IMG/VR virus record: IMGVR_UViG_3300027649_000008
Coordinates: 1 to 33,049 of that record
Source: a virus
DNA: 33,049 nt
Strand: one strand, 5' to 3'
The notes under the pieces are model-generated. The model saw only the letters and a list, made by a program, of their open reading frames with translations. It had not been told where the DNA came from and searched no databases. Positions 2 through 33,049 of the stretch are shown here, piece after piece. Positions within the stretch are counted from its first letter, which is position 1; each line of letters starts with the position of its first letter. The position numbers were made by a program, and so were the translations under genes.

Positions 2-2569
2 ATAAACATCAACGCCCCTAAGGCCGACCAGAGAACGGCTCTCGAAAAGATATTCGGACTTACAAAGAACTATGTCATGTTCCCCGGCTCTGAGGACGCA
101 ATAAAGATACTTAGTAGAAAGAACCAGAACAACGAAGGCGTGGACTTAAATAAGCCAACTCCTCGTAGCGAGTGGTCGCGCGGAAAATACTTTAGCTCTA
201 TAGCAGCAGCGACAGCAGCAGGACTCGCTGCTGGTCTATCAACTCAAGAAGCGGAAGCAGCCGCAGCTAAAAAGATGGCAACGCTGTATCGCGGCGAAAC
301 GAGCATTATCGGCCCACCAGCTAAACCACCCCCAGATTGGATGCTGGAGGACAAAGACTTTCTAGCGGCGGCGGATGCACAGGGTCGCTGGTTCAACAGA
401 ACCCCAGAAGAAGCACAATGGTATATCGACCATGCTGCAAAAATGGGAAAAACAACCGGCATGTCTTCGCTAGAAGTTCCAGAAGAAGACCTAGCCAAGT
501 ATCTTGTTGCTAACCAACCGGATGAAGTGCGTAGACACTCTCGCAGGCCAGACGATGAGTATTTCCTTCCTAAAGATTTAGCAGCTACTAGAGAACGCAT
601 CACAGCACTGCTAACAGCACTGCTAGCAGCAGGAGCAACCGGTAGAGCAACCGCACAGGCTCAAGAGCCAAATGCTTCAGCAGAACAGGAGAGCGCGTTC
701 CAAGACTGGTACGCAAAGCAAGCATACGAAAACGGGCTTTCTCCAAACCCCGATGACCCAGAACATCAGTACGATTGGCGGGCCGCACATAACGCTGGGG
801 CAGAAGGTCAACTGGCAGAGGATGGCTATAAGCACTGGCCTTCTGAATTCAAACGCCCGGATCATCCCAATCGGTTCATTGACGGCATCGACACGATTAC
901 AGGAAATCCAGTAGATCCAGAACCCGCCCCAGAGGCAACTGGCTCGTACATGGACTATCTGACCAATCTTGTCAAAGGCGATAGCAACCAAAGGCAATTG
1001 GGCTTCTTTGGCTCTGATCCCAGAGAGATGGAACAGTGGTACGGCAGCACAAAGCCGCCAGCTTACAGAGAGTTCCTAGACGAAGCCAAGCCAGTTTTTG
1101 AAAAAAGAGTTCTTGAGCATATAGAGAATCTGCCAGAAAACCAGCGTGAAGAAGCTCGCCAGACACTGAAAGAGAACTACGGGGATATTCGCGGCAACGT
1201 GCTTGGGTGGGAACACAACAGGATCAACTCACGGGCTAAGAACTTTGTAGATAATTTCTTGTCCGAGATGCACTCGCGTACGCCCGGACAGTCAGAAGCA
1301 GCAATGCCAATGAGGACTCCAGAAGAAGTAAGCGACAACCTTAATAGCACATGGAGTGATAAGAACTCGCTAGGTGGCAATCTACTTGCTACAGCAGATG
1401 CTCGTTTTGCAATGGACAATGATGGTGTACTCAGGAACCAGAAGCAGCTAGAGAGCGATCTAAACTTGCTTAGAACCTTTCAGCGAGAAGGCCCAAACAA
1501 GCCTGTTTTCGTTGGGACAGGAAGCCAAATTCTTGGCGGCATCGGTTCATTCTTTGACAACGACGAAATAAGGAATTCTCCATTACTAGAAGGACGGTTG
1601 CCGCCATCGCAGACTGCAAAGCTGGCAAATCTTGCGTACGCCAATCGCCCACAAGACGCACTAGAAGCGTCAATGATCTGGAGAAAAAATAGCCGCCCAT
1701 TCTGGGATCAGAGCGATCCTAACTACAGAGACAGCCTCGGCGCTAAGAACCCTCAAGATAGCTGGACTACTCCTGAAGGCATGATGTCAGAGAGCGCAAG
1801 CACCAATACGTTTTTTGGCTCAATGAATGCAAACACTTACAACGCGCTCGCACATCTCAACAAGTGGGCTACACCGACTGACCGGCAGGGGCTATCAGAT
1901 CAGATGGACACTTATCAGGCCTTGCAGCAAAAAGCCCCAATTGTTCCAAAGCACCTACAGCCAGAAGCCCGAAGCGCACTGGATCAGTCTAAAGCAGAAG
2001 AACAGCAGGCTTACCATGATCCAAATGTCATGTACAGAAAGCTACAGGGACTTCTTGGAATTAAGAATCCAAAGTATTTTACTGGCCTTGGCAACTCAGG
2101 AATTGGCTCCTACAGATATACACTTGATGCCCCAACCTTAGCTATGGGTGCAGTGGGTGGCCTATTTGCTGGCGGCTTAAGGCCTGCGTTGGGTAATTTT
2201 GCAAAGGAAACAGGAAAAGACTGGCTCACGGAAATGCCGCTTCAAGCAGCAATTGGCACAACGTATGAACCTTCCGCAAATAGCACCTACGAAAAAGCTA
2301 AGAACTTCATGCTAAATGAGTCGCAGGGCTTTCAGGACGAGAACGGCAACCCAGTCCCGGCTAATCATCCACGCTGGGACGAGCTTGCTGCCGAACGGGA
2401 CAAGGTACAAGAACAACGCTTTCAGGGTCAGGCTAATTTTGGAGCAAAGCTCAAAAAGCCCGCCCCGCTACCCTTGCAACAAGATACTGAAAATGATATT
2501 AACTATAAGCAGTGGAGAAAAGGGCAAGGAAGTATACATCTAGACTACCTAGACACAATGAGGAGATAA
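2..2569 (+). CDS. Large polyvalent-type phage protein with ART-like region (5' end missing)
   Basis: The frame is open from base 2 through the first internal ATG at 77, so the gene very probably begins upstream and at least 855 residues lie here. The opening stretch includes YVMFPGSEDAIKI and may be the tail of an upstream domain. A region at 287-590 has the pattern YRGE ... GRWFNRTPEEAQWY ... DDEYFLPKDL, which resembles ADP-ribosyltransferase-like domains of phage polyvalent proteins (aromatic-Arg-Gly, then GRWF-T, then Glu). Two Ala/Leu-rich hydrophobic segments at about 190-270 and 595-660 each end in an AxA-like stretch, and a Gly/Ala-rich segment lies near 2140-2200. The rest is polar and unrecognised. 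It lies 6 bp before the scaffold gene, so it may be packaged or injected with the DNA. The ART call rests on motif memory only. Confidence 0.8.
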   Translation: MNINAPKADQRTALEKIFGLTKNYVMFPGSEDAIKILSRKNQNNEGVDLNKPTPRSEWSRGKYFSSIAAATAAGLAAGLSTQEAEAAAAKKMATLYRGETSIIGPPAKPPPDWMLEDKDFLAAADAQGRWFNRTPEEAQWYIDHAAKMGKTTGMSSLEVPEEDLAKYLVANQPDEVRRHSRRPDDEYFLPKDLAATRERITALLTALLAAGATGRATAQAQEPNASAEQESAFQDWYAKQAYENGLSPNPDDPEHQYDWRAAHNAGAEGQLAEDGYKHWPSEFKRPDHPNRFIDGIDTITGNPVDPEPAPEATGSYMDYLTNLVKGDSNQRQLGFFGSDPREMEQWYGSTKPPAYREFLDEAKPVFEKRVLEHIENLPENQREEARQTLKENYGDIRGNVLGWEHNRINSRAKNFVDNFLSEMHSRTPGQSEAAMPMRTPEEVSDNLNSTWSDKNSLGGNLLATADARFAMDNDGVLRNQKQLESDLNLLRTFQREGPNKPVFVGTGSQILGGIGSFFDNDEIRNSPLLEGRLPPSQTAKLANLAYANRPQDALEASMIWRKNSRPFWDQSDPNYRDSLGAKNPQDSWTTPEGMMSESASTNTFFGSMNANTYNALAHLNKWATPTDRQGLSDQMDTYQALQQKAPIVPKHLQPEARSALDQSKAEEQQAYHDPNVMYRKLQGLLGIKNPKYFTGLGNSGIGSYRYTLDAPTLAMGAVGGLFAGGLRPALGNFAKETGKDWLTEMPLQAAIGTTYEPSANSTYEKAKNFMLNESQGFQDENGNPVPANHPRWDELAAERDKVQEQRFQGQANFGAKLKKPAPLPLQQDTENDINYKQWRKGQGSIHLDYLDTMRR
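287..590 (+). other. Putative ADP-ribosyltransferase-like region within the first protein
   Basis: The translated region starts with YRGE at 287-298, continues with GRWFNRTPEEAQWY beginning near 383, and ends with DDEYFLPKDL near 550-580. ART folds place an aromatic-Arg (or His) on the first strand, a Ser/Thr or Tyr after an aromatic in the middle, and a catalytic Glu near the end; Arg of YRGE, Thr after GRWFNR and Glu of DDEYF fit this order. Catalytic competence cannot be judged from sequence alone. A related but inactive domain is possible. Confidence 0.45.
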
Positions 2570-2575
2570 GCAAAC

Positions 2576-3685
2576 GTGGCAGAGAACATCCAAAGCGACT
2601 TAGATGCGCCAGATGACGTTTCATATGAGTCACCAGAGTCAGAATCGCCCGAAATAGACAGTTCTCCCGAGGATATTGACTCCGGCGAACAGCCAGAAAG
2701 CCCAGATTCTGTTGCGGAGGTTAATCATTATGCCCCTTTTCGCGCACTTCCGCAGTTTGCTGGCCAAGATGACGCACAAATTGCGTTCTCTCTGTATGAA
2801 ACCATGCAAAGAGAGCAAGCAGCGACCAATGCTCTCCAGCAATATCAGCAAATCATCCCATTTGCCAGCGAATATCTGTCAAATAAAGAGCAATACGACC
2901 AGTGGGTTGCCCAGCGAAACCAACCACAACAGCAAATGCAGCAGCCCATGCAGCAGCAAATGCAGGCACAAGCTCCAAAACCAGAAAGTTGGTGGAATCC
3001 TCCAGCCGTTCGTGAGGCATACAAGCAATACTTAACCCGAGACGAGAACGGCAGGGAGGTTATTGCTGAAAATGCACCCCTAGACGCTAGGCATGCTTTG
3101 TCAGAAATGCAGGCTTATAAGGCTGATTTTGCCCGCAAGTTCCTTGAAAACCCCGAGCAAACACTAGGCCCAATGGTCGAACGTGTAGCTTCTAGCCGTG
3201 CGGCAGCGATGGTTCAGCAGCAGTTTGAGCAGGCAGAGAATGAGCGTTTTGTTGCTGGCCTACAGGAAGACAACAAAGAATGGCTCCTTGATTCTCAAGG
3301 CAATGTATCCCGAGAAGGCTTGTTATGCCAGAAATTTATTGATGACGCAAAAAACATGGGCATTGTTAGCCCACAAAACCGTTGGGAGTATGCAAAAAGC
3401 CAAGTGACCAGAACCCTTCTGGAAGCTAACTTCCGCAATTCTCAGCAACCGCCATCTCCAGCACCAGCACAACCAGTACAACAACAAGCCCAACAGCCGG
3501 TAGCCCCGCAGCCAACGCAAGCTAGCCAGCAAGCCCAAAAGAACATGGACTACCTCAGGGCGCAGGCCGCAAGGACTGCCCCGAGAAACTCCCAAGCTAC
3601 GACAGATCCAAGAGTTCCTAAAAAACCACTATCTTTTGCAGACAAACTAAACCAACAGTTTGCAGCAGAAGGACTGACAGAATAA
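2576..3685 (+). CDS. Probable capsid scaffolding protein
   Basis: A 369-residue protein starting at GTG 2576, with AGGAG at 2561-2565 placed 10 bases upstream. The N-terminal 50 residues are very acidic and Ser/Pro-rich. Residues about 110-135 are Gln/Met-rich, the middle is predicted helical with many Gln, Glu and Ala, and another Gln/Pro/Ala-rich linker lies near residues 285-325 before a basic C-terminal tail. Acidic N terminus, helical Gln-rich body and short basic tail are typical of podovirus scaffolds, which bind capsid protein through the C-terminal tail during procapsid assembly and then leave. It sits immediately before the major capsid gene, as scaffolds usually do. No catalytic motif was seen, and no protease is fused to it. 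Confidence 0.75.
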   Translation: MAENIQSDLDAPDDVSYESPESESPEIDSSPEDIDSGEQPESPDSVAEVNHYAPFRALPQFAGQDDAQIAFSLYETMQREQAATNALQQYQQIIPFASEYLSNKEQYDQWVAQRNQPQQQMQQPMQQQMQAQAPKPESWWNPPAVREAYKQYLTRDENGREVIAENAPLDARHALSEMQAYKADFARKFLENPEQTLGPMVERVASSRAAAMVQQQFEQAENERFVAGLQEDNKEWLLDSQGNVSREGLLCQKFIDDAKNMGIVSPQNRWEYAKSQVTRTLLEANFRNSQQPPSPAPAQPVQQQAQQPVAPQPTQASQQAQKNMDYLRAQAARTAPRNSQATTDPRVPKKPLSFADKLNQQFAAEGLTE

Positions 3686-3701
3686 GAAAGGCTTATTGAA
3701 T

Positions 3702-4841
3702 ATGGCTAGCCCAACAGACTGGAGCCGACTTATCGGCGTTACGATTGTCAACCATCTTCGTGAAGAAGAATTGGCAACATTCCGTAAGTTCAAAGTATTT
3801 GCTGCTTTAGAGGCTTCCGGTAACGTCGTAATGAATCAGTCTGGAAGGGGAATGGACTGGAACGTCCGTTATCGAAATACCCCTGTTTCAGGAAACTCTG
3901 GAGATACACCAAGGACGTTTGCGCGTCAGAACTTGTGGAAGTTGGCAAACCTGCCTTGGAGGGGCTTTGTCACGACAGATAGCATTTATCGTCGTGAAAT
4001 GCTGGAAAATCGCGGCCAGCAGGCACTTGTCAATGTTGCATCTAACATGGCAAGTCGTCTGCAAGAGAGTCTGGAGCAGCATCTGGCTACGCAAATCTAT
4101 GCAAATGGAGATGCCGCCGGTTACGAGAACTCGTTCCACGGCCTCGAAACCTTTATGGGTTATGCTGGAACCATTAACTCGGGTACTGCTGGCGTTGCAG
4201 ACCAGTTTACTCAACGTGCGGCTGGTAACGCAGCAGATCCTTATGGATTTCCGTCTGGCCAGTACGCCGGTCTGAAGACGAATCTGGGTTATTACGGCGG
4301 TGGACGCACGGGTGGCGTGGATTCATGGCCAAGATCGCCCGTTGATCCGGAAGCGGATTTCTACAGCCCGGTAATAATTAACTATAGTTCCACAAGCTAT
4401 GGGTTTGCAAGCTGGAAGCTCGGCAACTGCATTTCGGCAACTCGGGAAGGCATTTTCCAGTGCAAGCGTAACGATACGCGAGAAAGTGCTATTGATATGG
4501 TGATTCTGGACAGGAATCTCTATATTCAGTACCTGAATGCTCTCAACACCACAGAGCGGGCTATCGTTACGAAGACCACCGGACTCCGTAGCTATGGATT
4601 TACCGATGTATTTGAACAGGACGGCGTTGAAATCACGACCGAATACGCTGTTCCTCAAGGAAAAGGCTTTGGAATCAGTGTTGGAAACATGGAACTCCGC
4701 TGCTTAGAGAATCAGCTTATGGTAGCAGAGGGGCCATTTTTCTCGGAGGAACTACAAAGTTATAGATATTCCTGTAGTGTTCTCGGCAACCTCCGGTTCC
4801 GTAGTCCACGAAACTTCTTTGCCCTCGCACCTATCGCCTGA
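3702..4841 (+). CDS. Major capsid protein
   Basis: Start chosen at ATG 3702 (379 residues) because AAAGG at 3687-3691 is 10 bases upstream; an in-frame TTG at 3696 would leave only 4. The protein opens MASPTDWSRL, has a long helical stretch at residues about 97-133 (like the spine helix of HK97-fold capsid proteins) and then HGLETF at residues 146-151, a short motif I associate with major capsid proteins of podovirus-like phages. There is no signal peptide or membrane segment. It follows the scaffold gene and precedes the decoration protein, the usual head cassette. It ends with TGA followed directly by TAA. Assembly into the icosahedral shell is inferred from family and context; the fold itself is not proven here. 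Confidence 0.85.
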   Translation: MASPTDWSRLIGVTIVNHLREEELATFRKFKVFAALEASGNVVMNQSGRGMDWNVRYRNTPVSGNSGDTPRTFARQNLWKLANLPWRGFVTTDSIYRREMLENRGQQALVNVASNMASRLQESLEQHLATQIYANGDAAGYENSFHGLETFMGYAGTINSGTAGVADQFTQRAAGNAADPYGFPSGQYAGLKTNLGYYGGGRTGGVDSWPRSPVDPEADFYSPVIINYSSTSYGFASWKLGNCISATREGIFQCKRNDTRESAIDMVILDRNLYIQYLNALNTTERAIVTKTTGLRSYGFTDVFEQDGVEITTEYAVPQGKGFGISVGNMELRCLENQLMVAEGPFFSEELQSYRYSCSVLGNLRFRSPRNFFALAPIA

Positions 4842-4850
4842 TAAACACCT

Positions 4851-4866
4851 CACACGTTAGCGTGTG
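4851..4866 (+). other. Short perfect inverted repeat between capsid and decoration genes
   Basis: CACACG and CGTGTG form a 6 bp stem around the loop TTAG, 9 bases after the capsid stop codon and 10 bases before the Shine-Dalgarno of the next gene. There is only a TT after the stem, so a true intrinsic terminator is unlikely. It could protect the 3' end of capsid mRNA or mark a processing point. Confidence 0.4.
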
Positions 4867-4890
4867 TTCCCAAACAAGGAAGACAAAACC

Positions 4891-5814
4891 ATGTCTAGTT
4901 TTTTCTCTGATCCGTATTTCGGTCGTGGGCAGACGCTGCTTGCTGGCGAACTTATTGAGTTGGACGGTAATAGCTTCCCAGTTGCTGGGCAAAACATCGT
5001 TGGTGACGTTAAAGTTTTCAACGACGTAAATCCGCGTACTACGCAGATGTTGAGCAATCAGCTTGTGTATTGCATGGCCGCTCGTTATATGGGTACTACG
5101 GTCGCTGACGCAACTGTGCTTGCCGGTAAGACGATGGCAATTCTTGCAGACGGTGCTTCATTCACCACAAGCGCCATGCTGTCCGACATGACTGCTGGCA
5201 AGCGAATTGGCGTATTGGACGAATACTTGACTGGTCAACTTCGACAGTATGACATCGTATGGCTTGTGGTATCTGGCCCAACCGCGATGACAACTTCGCT
5301 GGCAGGTATTGCAGCAGGCGCGGCTGTAAAAATGGATGCAGTAGGGGCTATCCTTGCAATCAATATCCTCGCTGGCGGCACTGGCTACTCCGCCGGTTCT
5401 CTCACTATTACCGGTGGCGGTGGCTCATCTGGTGCTGCAACCTTTACCGTTACCAGTGGCGTAATTACAGCGGTAACGATTGGTACTGCCGGTACTCTCT
5501 ACTCATCCCCCCCAACAGTGACAAACGCCTCCGGTAGCGGGGCGTTATTTGACGTTGTTTATGGTGGCGGTTCAATTGCTGAAGCAACCGCACCATTAAC
5601 GCCCGGATTTGCAGTTGGATTGCATCGTGGAGCGGTTCGGATTCTGGGTTCTGCCCCAACGGCTGGCACTGATTCATCCGGCAATGTAGTTGCCGCTACG
5701 GCTACCGTTGCTGCCGATGTTGGCAGAGTGGACGTTGGGCTGGCAACTACGGCAACGCAGAGGAAGTGCCGAGTTCACTTTACTGGCAACACGATGACCG
5801 GTGCTGTCCTCTAG
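4891..5814 (+). CDS. Probable head decoration protein with GGxGY-type module
   Basis: Start chosen at ATG 4891 (307 residues) because AAGGA at 4876-4880 is 10 bases upstream; the longer frame from GTG 4864 would begin inside the hairpin. Residues 1-135 form a compact part with many beta-prone stretches and no recognised motif. Residues about 145-230 hold a Gly-rich module: NILAGGTGYSAG, then ITGGGGSSGAATF, then SGVITAVTIGTAG, then SSPPTVTNASGSGA. The same pattern occurs three times in the nozzle-like protein. The C-terminal part returns to beta-prone sequence with several Thr/Ala/Val stretches. Position directly after the major capsid gene suggests a capsid-surface or head-stabilising protein. 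A minor capsid protein or head fibre is an alternative. Confidence 0.55.
   Translation: MSSFFSDPYFGRGQTLLAGELIELDGNSFPVAGQNIVGDVKVFNDVNPRTTQMLSNQLVYCMAARYMGTTVADATVLAGKTMAILADGASFTTSAMLSDMTAGKRIGVLDEYLTGQLRQYDIVWLVVSGPTAMTTSLAGIAAGAAVKMDAVGAILAINILAGGTGYSAGSLTITGGGGSSGAATFTVTSGVITAVTIGTAGTLYSSPPTVTNASGSGALFDVVYGGGSIAEATAPLTPGFAVGLHRGAVRILGSAPTAGTDSSGNVVAATATVAADVGRVDVGLATTATQRKCRVHFTGNTMTGAVL
5330..5570 (+). repeat. GGxGY module in decoration protein
   Basis: Encodes AINILAGGTGYSAGSLTITG, GGSSGAATFTV, GVITAVTIGTAG and PPTVTNASGSGALFDV. It is the clearest copy of the module also found three times in the nozzle-like protein. Confidence 0.7.
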
Positions 5815-5888: not shown

Positions 5889-6572
5889 ATGGACACAAAG
5901 TTATGCACCAAATGCGCAAAAGAGCTTCCCAGTACCCTAGAGTTTTTTCGCCCTAACCATGGCGAAATAAGCAGCGTTTGCATTACATGTCACCGCACTC
6001 AAAAGAAAGCTGAAAAGAAGAGAGCTAAGGGACGAAGGGCAAATAACCTAAGCAAGCTGGAGGCAGCGGGGGTAGACCTATATGTACAGGCTACGCAGAC
6101 GGGCGGCAGCAATATACCCCATTCTGCCGAAGTAATTGAGCGTGTTTTCCAGTATTTTGGCGGGGTTGGCGGGTTTTCAAGCATCATAGTCAAGCAGTAT
6201 TACGACTCTCCACCGGGAGGGACTGCAAGAAACAGGCTCATTGAGACTATTGTCAGGCTTGTAGCAAAGAATGTGGAGCAAGGTGGGGCAAAGAAGCCGC
6301 TAACCTTGTGGTCAGAAGACGAGCTAGAAAAAGAACTAGAGTCCAGATTCAACGACGCTTTATTAACGTACAAGGGAATCACTATCAATGGCCAAGCAAC
6401 ACCCCTTATCGCCGCCCCCGCCGATTCTGCCGATGCCGCCAGTATTGAAAAAGCCTTGCTTGACGCAGTTTCAAAAGGACGAGATCAAGAGTTTGCAGTC
6501 GGAGATACGGGAACGAAAGATAGAAGCGTTGAGACTCTACGAGCCAACGGAGATGCAGTCGCTGATTCATAG
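5889..6572 (+). CDS. Putative small terminase subunit with N-terminal zinc ribbon
   Basis: Start taken as ATG 5889 (227 residues); upstream in-frame starts lie inside the terminator hairpin, and no clear Shine-Dalgarno was found. Cys6-x2-Cys9 and Cys31-x2-Cys34 form a four-cysteine zinc-ribbon pattern, followed by a Lys/Arg-rich stretch that could bind DNA. Residues about 80-150 include FGGVGGF, PPGGTARNRLIETIVRL and GGAKKPLTLWSEDELEKEL, a helical segment I associate with proteins next to large terminases in similar phages. Its last 185 bases overlap the large terminase in another frame, which supports a terminase small-subunit role (recognising phage DNA and recruiting the motor). An HNH-associated or transcription-factor zinc ribbon is the alternative. 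Confidence 0.55.
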   Translation: MDTKLCTKCAKELPSTLEFFRPNHGEISSVCITCHRTQKKAEKKRAKGRRANNLSKLEAAGVDLYVQATQTGGSNIPHSAEVIERVFQYFGGVGGFSSIIVKQYYDSPPGGTARNRLIETIVRLVAKNVEQGGAKKPLTLWSEDELEKELESRFNDALLTYKGITINGQATPLIAAPADSADAASIEKALLDAVSKGRDQEFAVGDTGTKDRSVETLRANGDAVADS

Positions 6573-8094
6573 GGCAACTGCATCAGAAGTTCTTGTTATC
6601 GGTGGAAACCGTAGCGGAAAAAGCCTGTGTTCGTTCGTAGAGGACGCACGGGCAGTTACTGGGCAAGATCCATTCGATAAGTACCCCAAGGCAGATGGCA
6701 TTTTAGTCGTAATCGGGAAGGATTGGCGGCACATAGGTATGGTGGCGTACCCCTATTTGTTCAAAAAAGGTGCTTTTAAGATCATTAAGGACGAGGTTAC
6801 GAAGGAATGGCGGGCATATAGGCCCGGTACAGACGAGGCTAGACGCAAAGAATCTATGCCAGCACCACCCCTAATCCCTCAAAGGATGGTTAAAAAGATC
6901 AGTTGGGTGTTGAAAAGTGCCAACTATATCCAGAAAGCAGAGCTTCATAACGGCTGGACTATCTACTTCTTCTCAAGTGAGGGTGATCCCGTACAGGGCT
7001 ACGCCGCAGATAGGGTACATTGTGACGAGGACTTAAACAATGAGAACTGGATCAGTGAGTGTCAGGCCAGATTAGTAGACAAAAAGGGTAAATTTTGTTG
7101 GTCGGCAATGCCCCACTCGACTAATAATGCACTATTAACCCTTAAGGAACGTGCTGATGCAGAGCTAGAACAGCGCAAGGAAAACCCTGACATAGTGCAG
7201 TTTAAGCTCAGATTTTTAGATAATCCCCATATTGATGAAAAGGAAAAGCAAAAATCCCTAATTAGGTGGAGTGCGAGCGGCCAAGACGTTCTAAGAATGC
7301 GGGCTGAAGGCGACTTCATCACAGACAGCATTCTGGTTTACCCCACATTTGATATGCGGATTCACGGCTTCAGCAGATCGGAGCTTCCCAATGGTCAGGT
7401 TCCAGCCGATTGGTGCAGATATGCAGTAATTGACCCCGGTCATTCAGTTACTGCCGTGCTTTTTGCAGCAGTTCCACCGTCTGAAGAGTATGTACTGGTG
7501 TATGACCAGCTTTACTTACGGCAGTGCAATGCCCAGATATTTGGCGAGAAGTTTGCCGAGAAGATCAAAAACGGCTTTAGGGCTTTCATCATTGACGGTC
7601 ACGGTGGGCGACTTCGGGACATCGGCTCAGGCCGCCTCCCCATAGAACAGTACACAGAACAGCTTATTAAGCGTCAAATACGCAGCGAAGTTACCGGAAG
7701 CTCGTTCATTGCCGGATGTGATGACATCCAAGCCCGCTGCGAAGCAACCCGTAATTACCTACATATTAAGCCGTCTGGGACTCCAACCCTAAGAATCCTG
7801 ACTGAATCAGTGCCGGATTTAGAGAGAGAGATCAAGCGATACCGCAAGAAGGTAAACATTGTCGCTGGGACATCAATTGTGACCGATAGCCCTCTTACAA
7901 GAGGGGAAGTTCACTTGTGTCAGTGCATGGAATACCTGTGCGCATACCGCCCAAGTTATCATCGTCCACCAGTAACTGATGAAGTAGAACCGTGGTGGGT
8001 TAAGTTTCTGGCCGAGAAACGTAAGCGTCGTGGCATAACAGAGGATTCGTATGTATACTTAGGCCCACAAGGAGACTCCACAAATGATGAATGA
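6388..8094 (+). CDS. terL: Terminase large subunit (packaging ATPase and nuclease)
   Basis: ATG 6388 has AGGGA at 6373-6377, 10 bases upstream, and gives 568 residues. The N-terminal 25 residues are Pro-rich. YEPTEMQSLIH (51-61) precedes the Walker A motif GGNRSGKS (72-79). A Walker B-like stretch, VHCDED, lies near residue 210. The C-terminal RNase H-like nuclease is indicated by VIDPGHS near 347-353 and FIIDGHGGRLRD near 400. The enzyme would use ATP to drive DNA into the procapsid at the portal and cut the concatemer. The next ATG in this reading frame with a good context would remove conserved sequence before Walker A, so 6388 is kept despite the long overlap with the upstream gene. The stop overlaps the next gene start. 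Confidence 0.93.
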   Translation: MAKQHPLSPPPPILPMPPVLKKPCLTQFQKDEIKSLQSEIRERKIEALRLYEPTEMQSLIHRATASEVLVIGGNRSGKSLCSFVEDARAVTGQDPFDKYPKADGILVVIGKDWRHIGMVAYPYLFKKGAFKIIKDEVTKEWRAYRPGTDEARRKESMPAPPLIPQRMVKKISWVLKSANYIQKAELHNGWTIYFFSSEGDPVQGYAADRVHCDEDLNNENWISECQARLVDKKGKFCWSAMPHSTNNALLTLKERADAELEQRKENPDIVQFKLRFLDNPHIDEKEKQKSLIRWSASGQDVLRMRAEGDFITDSILVYPTFDMRIHGFSRSELPNGQVPADWCRYAVIDPGHSVTAVLFAAVPPSEEYVLVYDQLYLRQCNAQIFGEKFAEKIKNGFRAFIIDGHGGRLRDIGSGRLPIEQYTEQLIKRQIRSEVTGSSFIAGCDDIQARCEATRNYLHIKPSGTPTLRILTESVPDLEREIKRYRKKVNIVAGTSIVTDSPLTRGEVHLCQCMEYLCAYRPSYHRPPVTDEVEPWWVKFLAEKRKRRGITEDSYVYLGPQGDSTNDE

Positions 8095-8425
8095 TGAAGT
8101 ATGGCGAATGCCGACCGTACAGATTGGGGACTGTGTTCTTTTTAGCATGGACATGGATAACTTTTCTAAGCCGACAATTGGGTGGATTACACGGGAGCCG
8201 GGGGACAGCACAGTTCAAATTCTAGTATTCACAAACAACGGCTTTGTTGAAAAACCATCAGTGCATCACAAGGACGATCCAAGCGTCCACGAAGATCACG
8301 GCTGGCAACACCTTGGTTGTTGGGACTACGCTCCGCAGACTAGAGCTATTTACGGCCTCAAAGACGTACTTACGCCAGTCTTACTAGAGGAGGCTTCAGT
8401 TGAACGACAACTTGCCGCCCGATAG
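8084..8425 (+). CDS. Conserved small protein between terminase and portal, function unknown
   Basis: A 113-residue protein starting at ATG 8084 with AAGGAG at 8069-8074, 9 bases upstream. It overlaps the terminase stop by 11 bp and the portal start by 26 bp, so the three are probably translationally coupled. The sequence is beta-prone with many aromatic residues: GDCVLFSMD, then PTIGWITREPG, then FVEKPSVHHKDDP and GWQHLGCWDYAP. I recall similar small proteins with EKPSVxHKDDP between terminase and portal genes in other uncultured phages, but no function. There is no signal peptide or membrane segment. Roles in packaging or portal assembly would fit the position but are not shown. Confidence 0.75.
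   Translation: MMNDEVWRMPTVQIGDCVLFSMDMDNFSKPTIGWITREPGDSTVQILVFTNNGFVEKPSVHHKDDPSVHEDHGWQHLGCWDYAPQTRAIYGLKDVLTPVLLEEASVERQLAAR
8386..8393 (+). promoter_or_regulatory. Ribosome binding site deciding the portal TTG start
   Basis: AGAGGAGG ends 6 bases before TTG 8400. No in-frame ATG with a comparable site is near, and the protein sequence immediately after the TTG already looks portal-like, so this site fixes the unusual start. Confidence 0.75.
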
Positions 8426-10484
8426 TCCACTGCGACAGATAACTGCTACTTGGGTTAAAAAGCTAGAGCAGGCCATTAAGTACAAAAAGCCTTTTGCAGA
8501 TGATGCAAAAGAGGCCATGAACTTCTATGATGGCGAAAACAACTGGATGTGGCGAGACGGCTACGCCAGAGGAGATAGGGGTTACAACTCTAATATCTCG
8601 CCTCCTAGTTTTAGGATGCAGATTAACAAGGTTTTTGAACTCGTAGAGATTATGGGCAGTGTCATTTACCACCGGAACCCGGTGCGTACGGTGACAATCA
8701 TGCAGTTCCCAGAGATTTCCCCTGACGCGCTTGGCCTGCCCAATGTGCCAACGCCTGAATCTATTGCGCAGCTTACCCCAGAACAGATGCAGATTCTTCA
8801 GCTATTGCAGCAGCAAGAAGACACAAAGCGTGGCCGTGCAGTTGCAGCCCAGCTAATCCAAGCCTACCTAAACTGGACTCCTGTTGAGCTAGACCTAAAG
8901 ACGCAGGCACGAAAAGTAGTCAACGAGGCCATGATTAAAGGGGCTGGCGTGTTTTGGACTGAACTGGTCTCGCTTGAAACTTCCGGCGATAACCAGACAC
9001 CCGCAGTAAAAATGATCGGGAGTTTTTACGACACGATTGACTCGCTCTTGATAGATCCAGACTTTGATAACCGGGATGATTCCCTGTGGTGTGCGCGTCG
9101 GTGCGTTAAGCCAATTGGAGAAGTGGCCAAGGAGTACAACGTTCCCGAAGAAGAACTGCGCAAGCACCTTAGCAGCGGTCAGACTATTCGGGCAGACAAC
9201 GAGGCAAGAGACAGCAAAAAGAAGGCTGGCAAAACCAACGATCTAATTACTTACTACCGCATCTGGAGCAAGACTGGAGCGGGAGACCGTCTTAAGGATA
9301 GCCCCAAGGACAACAGGGGAGCTTTTGACGCACTGGGCGATTACGTTTATCTAGTAATTTGCGAGGGTGTCCCGTACCCACTAAATATCCCGCCAGCAAT
9401 TCTAGATCAAGAAATCGAGGAGGAAACTGGCGTTCCAGCAGAGCTTCTTGCCAGAGCATCGTGGCCAATCCCGTACTTCTCTGATCCGCAGGGCTGGCCG
9501 TACACAATGCTGTCATTTCACACTAAGCCTAACTATGCTTGGCCAATTAGCCATATTCGCCCAGCTATTCCAGAACTTCGCTTCTTGAATTGGGCAATGA
9601 GTTTCTTGGCTACACGAATCTCCACAAGCTGCGAGACAATGATTGGCGTGTCTAAAGCAGCCGATCAAGACCTCAAAGACCAGCTTTTGGCCCCGTCGCA
9701 GGGTGGCTTTAAGATTGTGGAAATCAGCGAAATGATTGGCCGCTCCGTGAACGATGTTGTTTCAGTGTTTCAGTTACCACAGGTAACAAAAGACATGTAC
9801 GACATTATCAGTGCAGTGTCGGATATGTTCGATAAACGCACGGGTTTGTCAGAACTCACATATGGAACTACCCGTGCGCAGTATAGAAGTGCCGCAGAGG
9901 CACAAATTAAGCAAGAGAACATTTCCATAAGACCCGACAACATGGCCAACGAGCTTGAGGATTGCATGTCACTCCTTAGCAGGCGAGAAGCACTGGCTGC
10001 TAGGTGGCTCTTAGAAGCTACCGATGTGGCCCCTGTTCTTGGCCCACTTGGTGCGATTGCTTGGGAAAAACAGGTAATGACCAGAGACATCGTTACGCTC
10101 ACAAGGGACTTTCTTTACAGGATCGAAGCTGGGTCAGCAAGAAAGCCTAACAAGTCTACCCGTGTTGAACAGATGCAAATGGCCATTCAGACGCTTGGCC
10201 CAATTCTGCAACCGGTAGCAATGGCAGGAGTTGTGCAGCCGTTTAACGCTCTTATTACAGACTGGGCAGACAGCTTGGACATTGACCCACTGCCATATCT
10301 GTTGCCAGAGCCACAACCACCACCGCCGCAAATGATGCTTCCACCACCGCCGGATGTACCGGGGGCTGCGCCTCAAGACAGCACTCCTCCCTCTGTTGAG
10401 ATGAGCGCGCCCCCGGTGCTATCGGATAATGAAATGCCACCACCCCAGCAGCTTGAACAAATACCCCCGGAATTGCAGCAATGA
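8400..10484 (+). CDS. Portal protein
   Basis: A 694-residue protein starting at TTG 8400. The first 100 residues include NFYDGENNW-like and GYNSNISPPSFRMQINKVFE sequence followed by MGSVIYHRNP, a pattern common to podovirus-type portals. The middle is a long mixed helix/strand region, and FDKRTGLSELTYGTTRAQYR near residue 480 resembles the segment before the helical crown. The last 65 residues are Pro/Gln-rich and probably disordered. Twelve copies would form the ring at one capsid vertex through which DNA is packed and ejected, docking the terminase and the adaptor. The stop overlaps the next gene as ATGA. Length is on the upper side for this family, close to large podovirus portals. Confidence 0.85.
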   Translation: MNDNLPPDSPLRQITATWVKKLEQAIKYKKPFADDAKEAMNFYDGENNWMWRDGYARGDRGYNSNISPPSFRMQINKVFELVEIMGSVIYHRNPVRTVTIMQFPEISPDALGLPNVPTPESIAQLTPEQMQILQLLQQQEDTKRGRAVAAQLIQAYLNWTPVELDLKTQARKVVNEAMIKGAGVFWTELVSLETSGDNQTPAVKMIGSFYDTIDSLLIDPDFDNRDDSLWCARRCVKPIGEVAKEYNVPEEELRKHLSSGQTIRADNEARDSKKKAGKTNDLITYYRIWSKTGAGDRLKDSPKDNRGAFDALGDYVYLVICEGVPYPLNIPPAILDQEIEEETGVPAELLARASWPIPYFSDPQGWPYTMLSFHTKPNYAWPISHIRPAIPELRFLNWAMSFLATRISTSCETMIGVSKAADQDLKDQLLAPSQGGFKIVEISEMIGRSVNDVVSVFQLPQVTKDMYDIISAVSDMFDKRTGLSELTYGTTRAQYRSAAEAQIKQENISIRPDNMANELEDCMSLLSRREALAARWLLEATDVAPVLGPLGAIAWEKQVMTRDIVTLTRDFLYRIEAGSARKPNKSTRVEQMQMAIQTLGPILQPVAMAGVVQPFNALITDWADSLDIDPLPYLLPEPQPPPPQMMLPPPPDVPGAAPQDSTPPSVEMSAPPVLSDNEMPPPQQLEQIPPELQQ

Positions 10485-12615: not shown

Positions 12616-15600
12616 ATGAAAGCTACTAAATGGCTGGGCTTGTTTAACACAATCTCGGCCTATTTGCTGCCTCCAACAGCAGCAGTCATCCAGAACAACT
12701 TACAGAGCATTCGCCCCGGAATGCTAACTCCTCGCCGTGGAATGTCTAGAAGGGCTGGCTCACTGCTTGGAAACGCAGTTTTGGCCTTATACCGCAAGAC
12801 AAGGGCAAGGCTTCCGGATCATCTAATACTCTATTCGTTCACTAAGACTGCGACAACGAGCGGAGGGTCGGCGTTTAGTTTCCAGTATTTGTACTCAGCA
12901 CAAAGAATACAACAAGACCCGGTTACTCTCACTTACCAAATTGACGACGTTTATCAAGACACAGGCACTGCCGTAACGTGCGTATTGGCAATCAACAGCC
13001 GTGTTGCTGTAACGTCATCCACTACAGAACGAGTTCGCGTAGGAGACAAGGCTCTCGGTGCTAGCATCCCAGACGGCACTGTAGTGCAGGCAGTTACTGC
13101 AACAACAATAACGCTTAGTCAAGCGGCCACGGTGTCTACCGCCGCAGGGCAAACTCAGACAATGACAATTTTCCCCGGCTCAGTAAGCGTCCCTTCGTTT
13201 GCAGAAGACAGGCACGGAAGGCTGTACATGTTCTTTGGCAACGGCATAAAGCCACAGATGCTGCGAACGGACGCGACGACGACAGTAGACGTTGGAATAG
13301 AAAGCCCGCAGGCCTTGGCAACAGTCTCAGCCTCCGGCGCATCCATGTTTATTGAGCGTGTAGATGTTTATAACGGCGGTGGTGGCTACTCCCAAGCGCC
13401 AGCGATTTCGTTTGCTGGCGGTGGCACAGGCATTAACGCTAAAGCAACGGCAATTATAGACAACGGCACAATAGCATCAGTAGAAGTGACAAGCGGCGGC
13501 AAGCTCTACACAGCTACCCCGCAGGTGACAGTTACTGACACTGGCCGAGGCGCGGGATTTGCTGGGGTAGCTACATTATCAAAAGCAGAACATAGGTTTG
13601 GCCCAGAAGTGGGTGTTCCAATAACGCCAACTTATACCGGGAATGTGCTAACAACAATAGGCACTACGGAATCCTATTTGTACTCATATGTTTCTAGCGT
13701 ACCCACAGTTCGGCAAGTTGGCGCAACGGCAGACGCTACCACAGTCGTGGGCAGCAAAATAATTACGCTTACTTCAAATGCAAATATGCAGATAATTGGC
13801 GGGCAGGCACTGGTAGGTACTGGAATCCCAGCCAGTTCTGTAGTGGTTAAGGTGACTCCTACGGGGCAATACTTAACAGACACTACAGTTGAGATGTCGC
13901 TGGCCGCAAGCGCAAGCGCAACTGTACCCGTGTCGTTTTATACTCTATCAGGGCTTTCGTTTGATATTGCTACGAGAGAGTACAGCGGAATTTTCCCTTT
14001 TCTGTCTACAGTTACAGAGGGAACTGGCGCACAGGCACAAATTACGTTCGCAGAAAAGTCGTCTGCGTTCAGGATCGCAGCAACACCTATTCCCGTCACC
14101 AGTCCGGCCTCGCTATACACCGGAATCCTTATATCAGCGACATACGAACCGGACTTACCAACTACTAGGAACTTCCTGACCTACTACGGCTTCTTCGGCG
14201 GTCAACCTCACAACTGGGGGCTGCTAGCTGCTGCGAATTATGGCCGATGGGGTGCTTATACAAGAATTAGCACCTCTACAGACGGTTGGGGCCGACCAAA
14301 CGCACCCAAAGAAAACTTTTGGTTTCCGGACTACAACTACATAAGGGTTTTTAGCCACACAGGAACTAAGTCTGACCAAAACATAAATCAGTGGACTGCG
14401 CAACAATGCCCAGTGGTTTATGTATCTGCAAGGAAGGCGTACATTGATGTAACGCTGTTTCCAGAGCAAGCAGCAGACGGGGTTCCCAGTCCGGTCGCCA
14501 TTGACGCAACAAATCCAGTTGTAAGGTTTTACCTTTCGTATTGCCCGACTTGGTGGGCAAGGAATTATCCAGATCCTTTTAATGGCACGGTAACAGAGAA
14601 TGCTGTTTTGTATCAACAAACTAATATGGCACAGCGATGGAGATGGCTTGGGTCAAACACATCGCCAAAACCAATTGTTGACTTTTGGCAAACAGGGCAT
14701 ACGGCTAGCCCCGGTGGTTTTACCGACAATCAGATTGAAAACAGTCAGTTTGGATGGAATCAAGCCAGTTCCTTTTTAGTAATACATCCGGGGTCTGGGC
14801 ATAATGCAAATGCGACGTTCAAGGTAAAATTTGTAGTGGGCAGAACCAACCCTCCTTTTCCATCCACAAGAGATGGTTACGCAAGAAATTCATCTTATCA
14901 AAACGGAAACCTTCAAGACGGTCTTCCCGTACTCCCTGCCGACATTTCTTACACCAATGGCGTATTTAACATTACGTTTACGGCGGATACTTCAGATCCG
15001 GGCGCTGGCGTAACTAGCCTGCCGTGGACTATCACAAAAAGCGTGGTAGCAGTCCAAGGCAGTAAATACAACACAGTGAATAATGACCTTGGAATTGTAT
15101 TGACGCATACAACTACGGCGACCGGCGTGCCGTCTGCTAATTTCACCAACCTCAAGACAACTGGTGTTAAATCGAGTGTCGAGAATCCTACAGACAGAAT
15201 TGAAACCGTAACTGTAAGCCTGCCCGGAGCGAACTACACGGGACAGCCTACATTCTCTTTAGACACGCCGTCTGGGAATGGGTACGGAGCGGAGCTATCT
15301 GCGGTAATTGATCCCGTCACTGGTGGACTTACCAAGGTAAACGTAATTGACGGCGGGCATGGGTATACGGACAACGGCTTTCTGATTGGAACAACGACAC
15401 CTACTCCAAGCCTTAGTGCAGTAATGCGTCCGACATTCAAGGGAACTTATAGCTGTGCGTACCGATACGCCGATTGGACAGACACAGTAGTAGGAACATG
15501 TTATGCAACAGCAACATCCGGCGGGATGACCCAGCCTACATGTATTGTAGATAGCGATGGTCAGGCCTTAATTAAGACGGGCTATGTTCTAGACGGCGGT

Positions 15601-18600
15601 CTGTTTAGGTTTCAAACAAAAGCGACATCAGTGTCGGGCGCGTCAATCTCTTTGAATCGGCCTACGACAAACCGAGCAGCAAATTCTTACAAGGGGGCTA
15701 TTCCCGGCGAAGTTATAGCCTCAGGAGCTAAGTTTGCTGCTAATCCGGTAATAACGTTTGCGGAAGTGGGCATGAGTATTGCTGGCTCGGGCATCCCGGC
15801 AAACACAACTGTCACTGGCATTGTTAGCCCAGTTATTACGATAGTCAACGCTCCTGTGACGGCAACAACTGCTACATGCCATACGATGACTGGCCAGCCG
15901 GTTATATGGGACGGCACTAGGATAACTGCTGTTCCGGGTTTCGTGGGCGCAACACCGACAATTAACCTACCGGTAACGGGGCCGGGCATTCCGGCAGGAA
16001 CCACCGTTACGGCTATTTATGGATCGCAATACAAAACCGTAACCGGGTGCAGTGCAACCGCTGGCTCAAACAATATCACAACAACAACGGCTGCCCCAAA
16101 TAACTTTCAGTTATTTTTTGTTGGGCAAGTTTTACAAAGTACAACTTTGTTTCTCCTTAACCCCGTATCGGTTCATAGAATTACGGCTATAGCAGCCAAC
16201 GGATTGTCGCTAACAGTGTCGCCGCCTACCGTAAATGCGGGAACCAATATAGCCGTTAGGGGCATGCCAACGCTTCAGATTTCGGCAAACGCAACAGCTA
16301 CTTCCAATTATTATGCTGCGTCGCCGTTGATACCCATTTATGTCACGATGACGTTTACCTCGGCAGCATCCTACTCAACCACAACTTCTGAACTAACTCT
16401 ATCTAACGTTGCCACCTCAACGTCAGAAGTAACTCTATCGCTGGTTAGTCCCGTTGTGAAGCGACTTGGAAGCACCACCCTCAATAGCACTACGGTCACT
16501 ACAGCAACAACAATTGGGTTTCAGATAGGCCAGCACATCTCGGGGGCGGGAATTCCGGGCGGCACATATATTCTCGCAATGACTGATGTTGCCATAACGC
16601 TAACTAATCAAGCTACGGCGACATCTGCGTCACCAATAATGCTGTCCTGTGGGTGGCTAACCACAATTCGGGACATGACGAAGCCAATTGCGTACAGCAA
16701 TTTCTCGCCAATTGCAACGGTGTCGGCAGGGAGTACGGCAAATTCAACTGGGCAACTAAACTGGCTGTGGGGTTCAAGCGTAACTACGCCCGACCGTGCA
16801 GAGATCGTAGAAACGTGGCGCACCAACGGCGACCAGTCGCTAGTGTTTTACCGTTCGGAAGTCTGGGCAAAAGCCACTCCACAAACGTCAATAGTTCTAG
16901 TAGAAAAACTACCAGACAGTGCCGCCCTAACGCTACAGAATGCCTTGCGTGGGTATGCAGCGGGCAGTAGCAGCGCCGACTACACATCAGACGAAGCACT
17001 GTTTGATTTTAACCGTACATTTTACGCAGCAATGCCAGTTGTGCTTCCAAACGGCGGGCTGAACGCTTTTAGATTCGACCAGCCAAGAACAGACATGCGA
17101 GTGTGTGCCGCCTATAACGACCGGCTTTGGTATGCGGTGTCTACAAGCGGCGTTGACACAAACACCATTTTCTTTAGCGAGTATGATGAATTTGAAAGCT
17201 GCCCAGAAACAAACGCCTTGACTATACAGAACAATCAAAAGCTAACGGACAGCCTTACGTCTCTCATTCCCTACGGATCAGTGCTAATTGCAGGCCAAGA
17301 GAACCATCTTTATCAGGTGACTTACAGCACTGATCCAGCAGTTGATGCCAGCGTGTCAATGCTTGCCCACCGTGGTATCTATAACCAGCGATGCTGGGAC
17401 ATTTACGACGATGAACTGTACTGTCTAGATCGCCGTGGCATGTACACCATGACGCAATCCGGGCAAGTAACACCCATCAGTGCAGCAGTTGATTCTTACT
17501 GGATAGACAGGGACATCGAAGCGACACGGACAGAAGCGTTTTTCATTAAGATTGACAGCAGTGCGGCAGTAGTGCGGGCGTTTGTTGTCGTACGCGATGC
17601 TAACGCTCCCGGCCCCAACTTAGTGCTGTGTTACTCAATCAATACCAAGACATGGTGGACGGAGACATACCCAACATGCATTACAGCAGCGTCTTCGTTT
17701 AGGCCAGAATCCACGCTTATTCACGACGATGTGTATGCAGCTATAGACGGTGGCGTGTACGCGCTAGACGGCCAGAACGACAGTGGCTACAGAAGCATTA
17801 CATCTGTAGAAGTGACGGCTAATGGCTCTGGGTACATTACGCCACCCAATGTAGTCGCTGCTACCTCGCAAGGAAGTGGCGCTAAGTTTCAAGCATTGCT
17901 CAAAAACGGCACTGTGTCCGAGATACTCGTTATTGACAGGGGTACTGACTACGGCGTTATAACAAGTACGGTGGGAAGGCGAGGTACGCTTACGCTAGCG
18001 AGCGGCATCTACACAGCCGCCCTTGACCTTCCATTTCTGGCAAGGATCAATGAGTCTGTACAAATACAACGTTATACAGACAGCACCTACCGAGTTCTGC
18101 TAGGCGAAGAAAAAACAGTCACGATAGCTACTGTGCCTGTGTACGGCGGCGCTACTTATCCGCGAACTGCATTCTTTGGGACATTGGCTAACGTAAGTGG
18201 TGTGAACAAGATTACCGTGGAAGACCCATCTCTTCTTCTTGTTGGACAAGCGCTAAACGTGCTTAATGGCATTGTGGCAAATACATTTATAACAGCGATT
18301 GTCGGTAATTTGGTTACATTAAGCACAAACAGTAACGCAATTACTGCAGTACGAACTCAGTACAAATCGTACTCTCCAAAGCAGTTTACAAGCACTACCA
18401 CAATTACTGTCACAGAACCAGATCCACCGTGGGGAGCGGGGCCGTGGAACGTCACCGTAACAACAGCCGAAACCGCAACGGCAGTCATCAGTCAGGCGTT
18501 TACAGATTCAGTAGCACTCCTGATTGACCCACCGGGTGAGGGCGGCACGACGGCTACGGCTGTAGCAAAGTGCCAGACACCCCCAAGCGAATTCGTTTTA

Positions 18601-31825: not shown

Positions 31826-32662
31826 ATGCAGGGGGCAATCAGCACAGAATCACCGGCACACTACCATGCATCGTATGGCATATCGGCCTCTCGGGTGAGG
31901 TTGTTCGCAGACTCTCCGTACGAATACTACCAACAGGTAGTGCTGGGCCTACCCGGCCCGCCACAGAGTCCACAGATGAGCTATGGGGAGCTTCTGCACC
32001 AGTGGCATGAATATGGCCCCACTAGGTTCTGGGAGCGCGTGGTAGTTGCCCCCGACAATGTACTGACAGCAGGCGGCGCATTTGGAAAAGCGGCAATTGG
32101 CTGGCTGGCAGATCAGGGGGACGACACAATTCCTATGAGTAAGTCTGACCAGCATCAGATCATGGCACAGACATCACAGATATTTGAAAACTCGGCGGCA
32201 AAGAAACTGATACTAAGTGCCAGCCATAAAGAGTTCGTTGTGCGATGGAAGTCGGAGTGCAACACCGACATGAGATCGCGCATCGACGGGATGGCTGATG
32301 GTACTATGTACGACATCAAAACCACCCGAGAACAGCGTCCACTTACTACATGGTGGAGGGCTGTACAGTCATACCGATATGACATCCAAAGCGTCGTCTA
32401 CACCGATGCCGGTGTATCTATTGGATTGGTGAGCCAGCCGTTACAGTTTATTGTTACTAGCACTGTACCACCGTATGCCTGTCATGTAGTCACACTGCCA
32501 GCAGGCTTACTAACTACAGCAAGAACAGCGGTACAGCGGTGTCTGGCAGAAATCAGGCACAGGACTGAGTGGGGCAATTGGCTACCCGACGATTATGGGA
32601 GTGTTACGGAACTGAGGTGTCCAACGTTTATGAGCAACCAAGAACCAATAGGGGAGATTTAG
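31826..32662 (+). CDS. PD-(D/E)XK exonuclease of RecE/YqaJ type (phage recombination)
   Basis: A 278-residue protein. The family motifs are in order: GELLH (residues 54-58, His58), RSRIDG with Asp154, YDIKTT with Asp163 and Lys165, and QSYRYDIQSVVY (Gln181 to Tyr192). This is the arrangement of lambda-exonuclease/RecE-like nucleases that resect double-stranded ends 5' to 3' and leave 3' tails; the closest named groups are the RecE/YqaJ/DUF3799-like families. The stop codon abuts the start of the annealing protein, its usual partner. Alternatives such as a Cas4-like nuclease are less likely because no iron-sulfur cysteine cluster is present (only three cysteines, not spaced for one). Confidence 0.8.
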   Translation: MQGAISTESPAHYHASYGISASRVRLFADSPYEYYQQVVLGLPGPPQSPQMSYGELLHQWHEYGPTRFWERVVVAPDNVLTAGGAFGKAAIGWLADQGDDTIPMSKSDQHQIMAQTSQIFENSAAKKLILSASHKEFVVRWKSECNTDMRSRIDGMADGTMYDIKTTREQRPLTTWWRAVQSYRYDIQSVVYTDAGVSIGLVSQPLQFIVTSTVPPYACHVVTLPAGLLTTARTAVQRCLAEIRHRTEWGNWLPDDYGSVTELRCPTFMSNQEPIGEI

Positions 32663-33049
32663 ATGGAAGACCCAAGACCCGCTATGAGAGCTATACCGCA
32701 GATAGCTGCAACAAGAAGGACGTATATATACCGCGAACAGACAGACTCTATACGGCAGCTTCTTCGGTCGCTGTCTGTTGCACAAGGCGAAATGACTACG
32801 CCTAAACGGACTACGCCGGGACAGTACGGCAAGTTCGCTGACTTAGAGGACTTGAAGGCAGCGAGTCGAGTGCCATTGGCCTCTAATGGGCTTGCGATTA
32901 TGCAGACGTTTGCGTGTGTGGATTCCGAACTGTACCTAAATACCACTCTTGGCCATGAGAGCGGTGAGTGGATCAGTAGCCAGATCCCGATTAAGCAACA
33001 CGCAGAAGCGCAGAAAACGTGTGCGTATATGACTTATATGCAGCGTAAA
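32663..33049 (+). CDS. erf: ERF-family single-strand annealing protein (3' end outside window)
   Basis: ATG 32663 follows the exonuclease stop with no gap (TAGATG); GGGGAG at 32651-32656 is 6 bases upstream. The visible 129 residues show the ERF pattern: GKFADLEDL (56-64), RVPLASNGLAIMQ (69-81), LNTTLGHESGEWISS (92-106) and AQKTCAYMTYMQRK (116-129), corresponding to the family's Y-DL--L, L--NGL---Q, T-L-H-SGEW and Q--GSA-TYA-RY stretches. In P22, Erf anneals single strands in phage recombination and genome circularisation. The reading frame is still open at the window end, so the C-terminal part is missing. The Gly-Ser expected before the TY pair is replaced by Cys-Ala. Confidence 0.85.
   Translation, partial: MEDPRPAMRAIPQIAATRRTYIYREQTDSIRQLLRSLSVAQGEMTTPKRTTPGQYGKFADLEDLKAASRVPLASNGLAIMQTFACVDSELYLNTTLGHESGEWISSQIPIKQHAEAQKTCAYMTYMQRK

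What the first reader, a model, noticed from the sequence alone, without database searches (positions are those of the whole stretch)
287..590. Possible ADP-ribosyltransferase domain in a large protein next to the head genes
The order YRGE, GRWFNRT, DDEYFLP fits the Arg, Ser/Thr, Glu logic of ART folds seen in phage polyvalent proteins. If this protein is packaged with the DNA, it could modify a host target at the moment of infection, as T4 Alt does. What is seen is the motif order; the ART assignment is by memory of the family; delivery is inference.
Basis: partly seen in the sequence, partly recalled or inferred. Interest (0 to 1): 0.7.

Follow-up and report, generated by a model that had tools for sequence, protein, structure and literature searches.

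The report
Second ART-like domain in phage protein
A phage protein encoded next to the head genes carries a small domain that very probably has the fold of NAD-using ADP-ribosyltransferases, from a sequence family that the databases searched here do not list; it sits on an exchangeable arm that in related phages carries other predicted enzymes, so it is probably a host-modifying tool, but neither its activity nor its injection has been shown.

Summary
The motifs are real and part of a conserved domain (window ~260-607) in an 855-aa ORF cut by the contig's 5' end. No Pfam, PHROG, NCBIfam or PDB sequence profile names it, but scans of environmental viral contigs gave 11 relatives; a profile made without the window finds it at 5e-23 among 12,236 ORFs. 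Across 12 members Arg is invariant, Thr/Ser follows GRWF in 11, and Glu is kept in 10; the window has Arg and Glu but Asn at the middle position. AlphaFold2 puts the three on strands 1, 2 and 5, as in ADP-ribosyltransferases (ARTs). 21 of 25 PDB fold matches are ARTs from several families, though each is weak (best E 0.34). Pfam ART-PolyVal weakly finds two relatives inside the domain. So: ART-like, but Arg-(Thr)-Glu, not the His-Tyr-Asp type reported in polyvalent proteins. The tail of a His-type ART-PolyVal domain lies just upstream at 62-124, so the intact protein probably had two different ART units in tandem. The C-terminal core is conserved in 33 related loci just before the scaffold-like gene, while the N-terminal part is exchangeable (none, ART, kinase-like, peptidase-like). 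Catalysis and delivery remain inference.

The parts
2..2569 (+). Polyvalent-type protein, 855 aa, 5' end cut off by the contig edge
   Evidence: open frame; relatives L002 and L003 continue upstream with about 400 aa more
62..124 (+). C-terminal tail (TKNYVMFPGSEDAIKIL) of a His-type ART-PolyVal domain whose body lies outside the contig
   Evidence: matches the last positions (255-272) of a profile of ART-PolyVal domains from related phages, i-E 3e-5; those domains hit Pfam PF18760 at 2e-6 to 1e-5
191..271 (+). Ala-rich hydrophobic linker ending in STQEAEAAA
   Evidence: hydropathy peak; same kind of linker in L002, L003, L015
260..607 (+). R-type ART-like domain (the finding)
   Evidence: family of 12; AF2 pLDDT 83.2, pTM 0.72
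290..292 (+). Arg on predicted strand 1, invariant in 12 of 12
395..397 (+). Asn at the strand 2 position that is Thr/Ser in the other 11 members
557..559 (+). Glu on predicted strand 5, kept in 10 of 12
599..664 (+). Second Ala-rich hydrophobic linker (ITALLTALLAAGATGRATAQAQ)
1022..2467 (+). Conserved C-terminal core of the protein
   Evidence: iterated profile finds it in 33 related loci plus the window, always ending about 1.0-1.2 kb before the major head gene
2576..3685 (+). Scaffold-like gene (by position and composition only)
   Evidence: no family hit; kept in order in relatives
3696..4841 (+). Major head protein
   Evidence: PHROG 9953 major head protein, E 1.1e-10; 154 relatives in viral contigs
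6388..8094 (+). Terminase large subunit (context)
   Evidence: tblastn matches to annotated terminases, best E 8e-9
8400..10484 (+). Portal or connector-like protein (context)
   Evidence: PHROG 332, E 2e-4

Best explanation
Window 260-607 encodes a small domain of the ADP-ribosyltransferase (ART) superfamily, in a so far undescribed Arg-(Thr/Ser)-Glu family, fused after a His-type ART-PolyVal domain and before a conserved core encoded beside the head genes. The likely mode of action is that the core is made with the head proteins and carries the N-terminal units into the virion, that the protein enters the host with the DNA, and that the domain binds NAD+ and transfers ADP-ribose to a host molecule early in infection, as T4 Alt does. 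Shown: the domain, its conservation, the linked ART-PolyVal tail, the exchangeable N-terminal architecture. Well supported but predicted: the ART fold. Inferred: catalysis, target, packaging and injection.
For: Family with invariant Arg, G-R-W-F and Ala, and a Glu kept in 10 of 12 members; leave-one-out E 5e-23. AF2 models: window pLDDT 83.2, pTM 0.72; relative L118 87.5, 0.77, with five concordant models. Arg falls on strand 1, the Thr position on strand 2 and Glu on strand 5, where ART catalytic triads sit (PMC13285283). Foldseek against the PDB: the first 12 matches of the window model are all ARTs, and 21 of 25 matches of the L118 model are ARTs from several families: TreX, TreTu, ParT, cholera and LT A chains, PARP14. 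Pfam ART-PolyVal hits relatives L132 (E 3e-5) and L110 (5e-4) inside this very domain. Ten of 12 members sit in proteins of 700 to 5,600 aa, one with a polyvalent InPase domain at 4e-26. The window protein's core is always just upstream of the scaffold-like and head genes; the small member L132 lies directly after a terminase gene. Phage ARTs near head and packaging genes are held to be virion-delivered (PMC9503650; PMC5512222).
Against: No single fold match is significant (best E 0.34, prob 0.41, TM about 0.38). No sequence family match for the window itself in Pfam, PHROGs, NCBIfam or PDB. The strand 2 Thr/Ser is Asn in the window, so activity could be reduced or lost. Arg-Glu geometry was not measured. 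There is no virion proteomics, and the 5' end of the gene is missing.
Confidence: 0.62

Rival explanations
1. The domain has the ART fold but no transferase activity in this phage: Asn at the strand 2 position has weakened or abolished catalysis, and it now binds a ligand or partner, or only cleaves NAD+.
For: Window is the only one of 12 with neither Thr nor Ser there; the prophage relative L130 has lost both Arg and Glu, so versions without the triad do exist.
Against: Arg and Glu, the two best kept catalytic-type positions, are present in the window.
Confidence: 0.2
2. An active ART that is not injected: it acts late inside the producing cell or protects packaging and head parts against host defence.
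For: The position beside head genes also fits this; PMC9503650 names it as an alternative.
Against: The conserved core with an exchangeable, enzyme-bearing N-terminus fits a carried protein better.
Confidence: 0.15
3. Not an ART: another small alpha/beta domain whose motifs look alike by convergence.
For: Weak fold scores; no ART family above its cut-off.
Against: Nearly all fold matches are ARTs from several unrelated ART families; strand positions of the triad; independent PF18760 hits.
Confidence: 0.1

Closest known systems
ART-PolyVal (Pfam PF18760), ART domains of phage polyvalent proteins, Tox-ART-HYD2 clade (PMC5512222)
   Same: Found in large phage proteins beside head genes; weak profile overlap on strand 2 and the following helix; the tail of one such domain lies directly upstream in the same protein.
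   Different: His-Tyr-Asp active site versus Arg-(Thr/Ser)-Glu here; shorter; no Pfam match for the window.
T4 Alt / VIP2 family, R-S-E clade ARTs
   Same: Arg, then hydroxyl residue, then Glu; Alt is packaged and injected with the DNA.
   Different: No ADPrib_exo_Tox (PF03496) match in any of 14 records; [quoted passage not shown] Asn at the middle position in the window.
Small Rhs ART effectors TreX and TreTu
   Same: Closest solved structures by fold and similar size (about 130 aa).
   Different: 11-16% identity, no significant score; secreted bacterial effectors, not phage proteins.

Membership tests
ART superfamily | Order of core strands with the triad on strands 1, 2 and 5 | tested here: met
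   DSSP of the AF2 models: window strands 8-17, 46-48, 67-76, 102-104, 114-116, with R13, N48 and E102 on them; L118 likewise for the first, second and Glu-bearing strands
ART superfamily | Significant fold match to solved ARTs | tested here: inconclusive
   Matches are overwhelmingly ARTs, but best E 0.34
ART superfamily | Arg and Glu meet in an NAD+ pocket; NAD+ is used | not testable with these tools
   no coordinates, no assay
R-S-E clade ARTs | Arg on strand 1 | tested here: met
   12 of 12
R-S-E clade ARTs | Ser/Thr on strand 2 | tested here: not met
   Asn in the window; Thr/Ser in the other 11 members
R-S-E clade ARTs | Glu on strand 5 | tested here: met
   window, and 10 of 12 in all
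ART-PolyVal (PF18760) | His-Tyr-Asp active site and Pfam score above cut-off | tested here: not met
   Arg in place of His; no window match; two relatives hit at 16 bits, cut-off 31.2
Alt/VIP2 type, ADPrib_exo_Tox (PF03496) | Profile match | tested here: not met
   0 of 14 records at E <= 1
Polyvalent proteins | Several unrelated domains in one phage polypeptide | tested here: met
   ART-PolyVal tail, R-type domain and conserved core in the window; InPase plus R-type domain in L088
Polyvalent proteins | Packaged and injected with DNA | not testable with these tools
   context only

The most novel reading that the evidence does not exclude
A previously unlisted Arg-(Thr/Ser)-Glu ART family is spread through genuine phage polyvalent proteins, where only His-Tyr-Asp ARTs were reported, and in this phage it is stacked behind a His-type ART on an exchangeable virion-carried arm, giving one injected protein two chemically different ART units.
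Probability: 0.45. Interest if true: 0.6.

Novelty: new variant of a known kind. Interest (0 to 1): 0.47.

Why it matters
Predicted virion-carried ARTs are thought to be a first-line phage strategy, but outside T4 few are tested. A small family with few hits outside uncultured phage contigs, tied to a module-swapping protein beside the head genes, gives a compact testable enzyme candidate and a site in phage genomes where further effectors can be looked for: the N-terminus of this core protein.

Tried and rejected
Direct homology searches with the window protein or segment in viral contigs and cultured phages: nothing. L077 tblastn match to the segment (E 0.006) lies in the scaffold-like protein and lacks the motifs: rejected. 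Erwinia jumbo phage matches (E 1-5) checked in DNA and lacked the motifs: rejected. Polysaccharide deacetylase and PUF60 profile matches are weak and do not cover both ends of the motif set: rejected. Genome-wide scan for GRWF motifs in bacterial genomes gave no in-family hit; profile searches of 369 and 395 bacterial genomes gave one divergent prophage relative (L130) and one false hit, L131, an enzyme with a chance GRWF. ADPrib_exo_Tox and DUF3990: no match. Direct profile-profile comparison of the family with the ART-PolyVal domains of related phages gave only 5% probability. Pelagiphage relatives of L132's terminase were checked for the domain in the following gene: not there.

Full report
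Setting. The window is a whole 33,049-base IMG/VR virus record, probably a fragment. The finding lies in the ORF 2-2569 (+), which runs off the 5' end. The genes that follow include a scaffold-like protein, the major head protein (PHROG 9953), the terminase large subunit and a connector-like protein, so the gene is in the head and packaging block.

Observation. YRGE, GRWFNRT and DDEYFLP are present and in frame. No Pfam, PHROG, NCBIfam or PDB sequence profile recognises the segment, and direct searches found no relative. A degenerate DNA pattern built on WFxxxx[DE]xAxW[YF]...F-L-P gave exactly two places in the whole viral collection, and both proved to be full-length relatives. Looser patterns added more. 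Twelve distinct members were aligned. The window aligns with L083 and L118 at 39-40% identity; a profile made without the window scores it at E 5.4e-23. So this is a real domain, about window 260-607.

Conserved positions. Arg is invariant, as are GRWF and an Ala in the next helix. The residue after GRWF is Thr or Ser in 11 and Asn in the window. Glu before F-L-P is kept in 10 of 12. The residue two before Glu varies between members, so no target amino acid can be guessed.

Fold. AlphaFold2 with eight sequences gave pLDDT 83.2 and pTM 0.72 for the window; with twelve sequences the relative L118 gave 87.5 and 0.77, all five models above 84. Arg lies on the first strand, the Thr/Asn position on the second, Glu on the strand that corresponds to the fifth, the arrangement described for ART triads (PMC13285283). 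Foldseek against the PDB returned mostly ARTs at the top: pertussis S1 and TreX in the first 12 places for the window model, with Vis toxin further down among unrelated proteins; TreX, TreTu, ParT, cholera and LT A chains and PARP14 for L118, 21 of 25 matches. That TreX, TreTu, ParT, Vis and PARP14 are ARTs is partly from the entry titles and partly general knowledge. Each match alone is weak (best E 0.34); the weight lies in several independent ART families being picked out of 350,542 chains by two different models. A sequence link agrees: Pfam ART-PolyVal, with no hit in the window, finds L132 (E 3e-5) and L110 (5e-4) within this same domain. The direct profile-profile comparison with the related phages' ART-PolyVal domains aligned only the strand 2 and helix region and was not significant.

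Which ART. Iyer et al. [quoted passage not shown] The present family is Arg-(Thr/Ser)-Glu, and ten of the twelve members are in large proteins, among them L088, which also carries the polyvalent InPase domain (E 4e-26), and L136 with a histidine phosphatase domain. Because the window has Asn at the middle position, I do not file the window domain as a strict R-S-E member; I describe it as an ART-like domain of a new family. A divergent prophage relative, L130, has YHGG in place of YRGE and no Glu.

Architecture. Relatives of the phage were found by their head protein. In them the gene before the scaffold-like gene has a conserved core (window aa 341-822), found in 33 other loci, each time ending 1.0-1.2 kb before the head gene. 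Its N-terminal extension varies: little or none in about ten loci (for example L030, L031, L037), His-type ART-PolyVal in L002, L003, L013, L022, L024 and near-identical copies, a kinase-like stretch in L012 and L021 and a HExxH-like stretch in L025 (both by eye only). In the window, aa 21-38 match the last positions of the ART-PolyVal profile of these phages (i-E 3e-5), so the cut-off part was most likely that domain, followed by the R-type domain. In the same place L003 has a different module and L002 none. None of the 21 related records searched has the R-type domain; the single E 0.002 hit lies in the ART-PolyVal region of L022. Ala-rich hydrophobic linkers bound the modules.

Function. 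By analogy with T4 Alt and the survey of phage ARTs near head genes (PMC9503650), the likely role is modification of a host molecule after injection with the DNA. This is inference: no proteomics, no assay, and the middle residue of the triad is unusual in this member. My estimates: ART fold 0.85; catalytically active 0.65; virion-delivered 0.6.

Verdict. As a kind of thing, a phage ART in a polyvalent protein is known; the sequence family, its residue type in genuine polyvalent proteins and the tandem with a His-type ART appear to be new in the databases and papers searched.

Noticed in passing
window 191-271 and 599-664; L002, L003, L015, L024: Short Ala/Leu-rich hydrophobic linkers ending in Ala-x-Ala-like stretches (STQEAEAAA, ATAQAQ) follow each N-terminal module; they resemble signal-peptide or membrane segments in mid-protein and could be processing sites or membrane-active parts.
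   Followed up: partly
L012:3776-6415 and L021:5805-8549: N-terminal extension of the same core protein looks kinase-like (IWQDNHRGNIGK...VVIDG), by eye only.
   Followed up: no
L025:397-3435: N-terminal extension holds an AHEMRHAI stretch like a zinc metallopeptidase; an ART-PolyVal ORF lies directly upstream.
   Followed up: no
L003:2826-6140, aa 474-575: A different module (GNIDL...EEVLLP...GKFSTPEAATAYAEQLH) occupies the place of the R-type domain; its motifs faintly recall the ART ones.
   Followed up: no
L130:1510-1791 (+): Gammaproteobacterial genome: an ORF of 4,850 aa with an H-type, Glu-less relative of the domain (YHGG, PRWFS).
   Followed up: partly
L133, L135, L137, L147: A second family of small phage proteins with FRGE/YRGT and GRWFT/GRWFS motifs, ending in a conserved RVETD; hhalign 94% to the R-type family over the middle region.
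   Followed up: partly
window 4864-5814 and 12616-19347: Both proteins hit the same PHROG virion structural and baseplate profiles through a Gly/Ser-rich stretch, suggesting a shared repeat-like module in a head-region protein and the 2,243-aa protein.
   Followed up: no
window 31826-33049: Exonuclease VIII-like gene followed by an Erf-like annealing protein cut by the contig end: a recombination pair.
   Followed up: no
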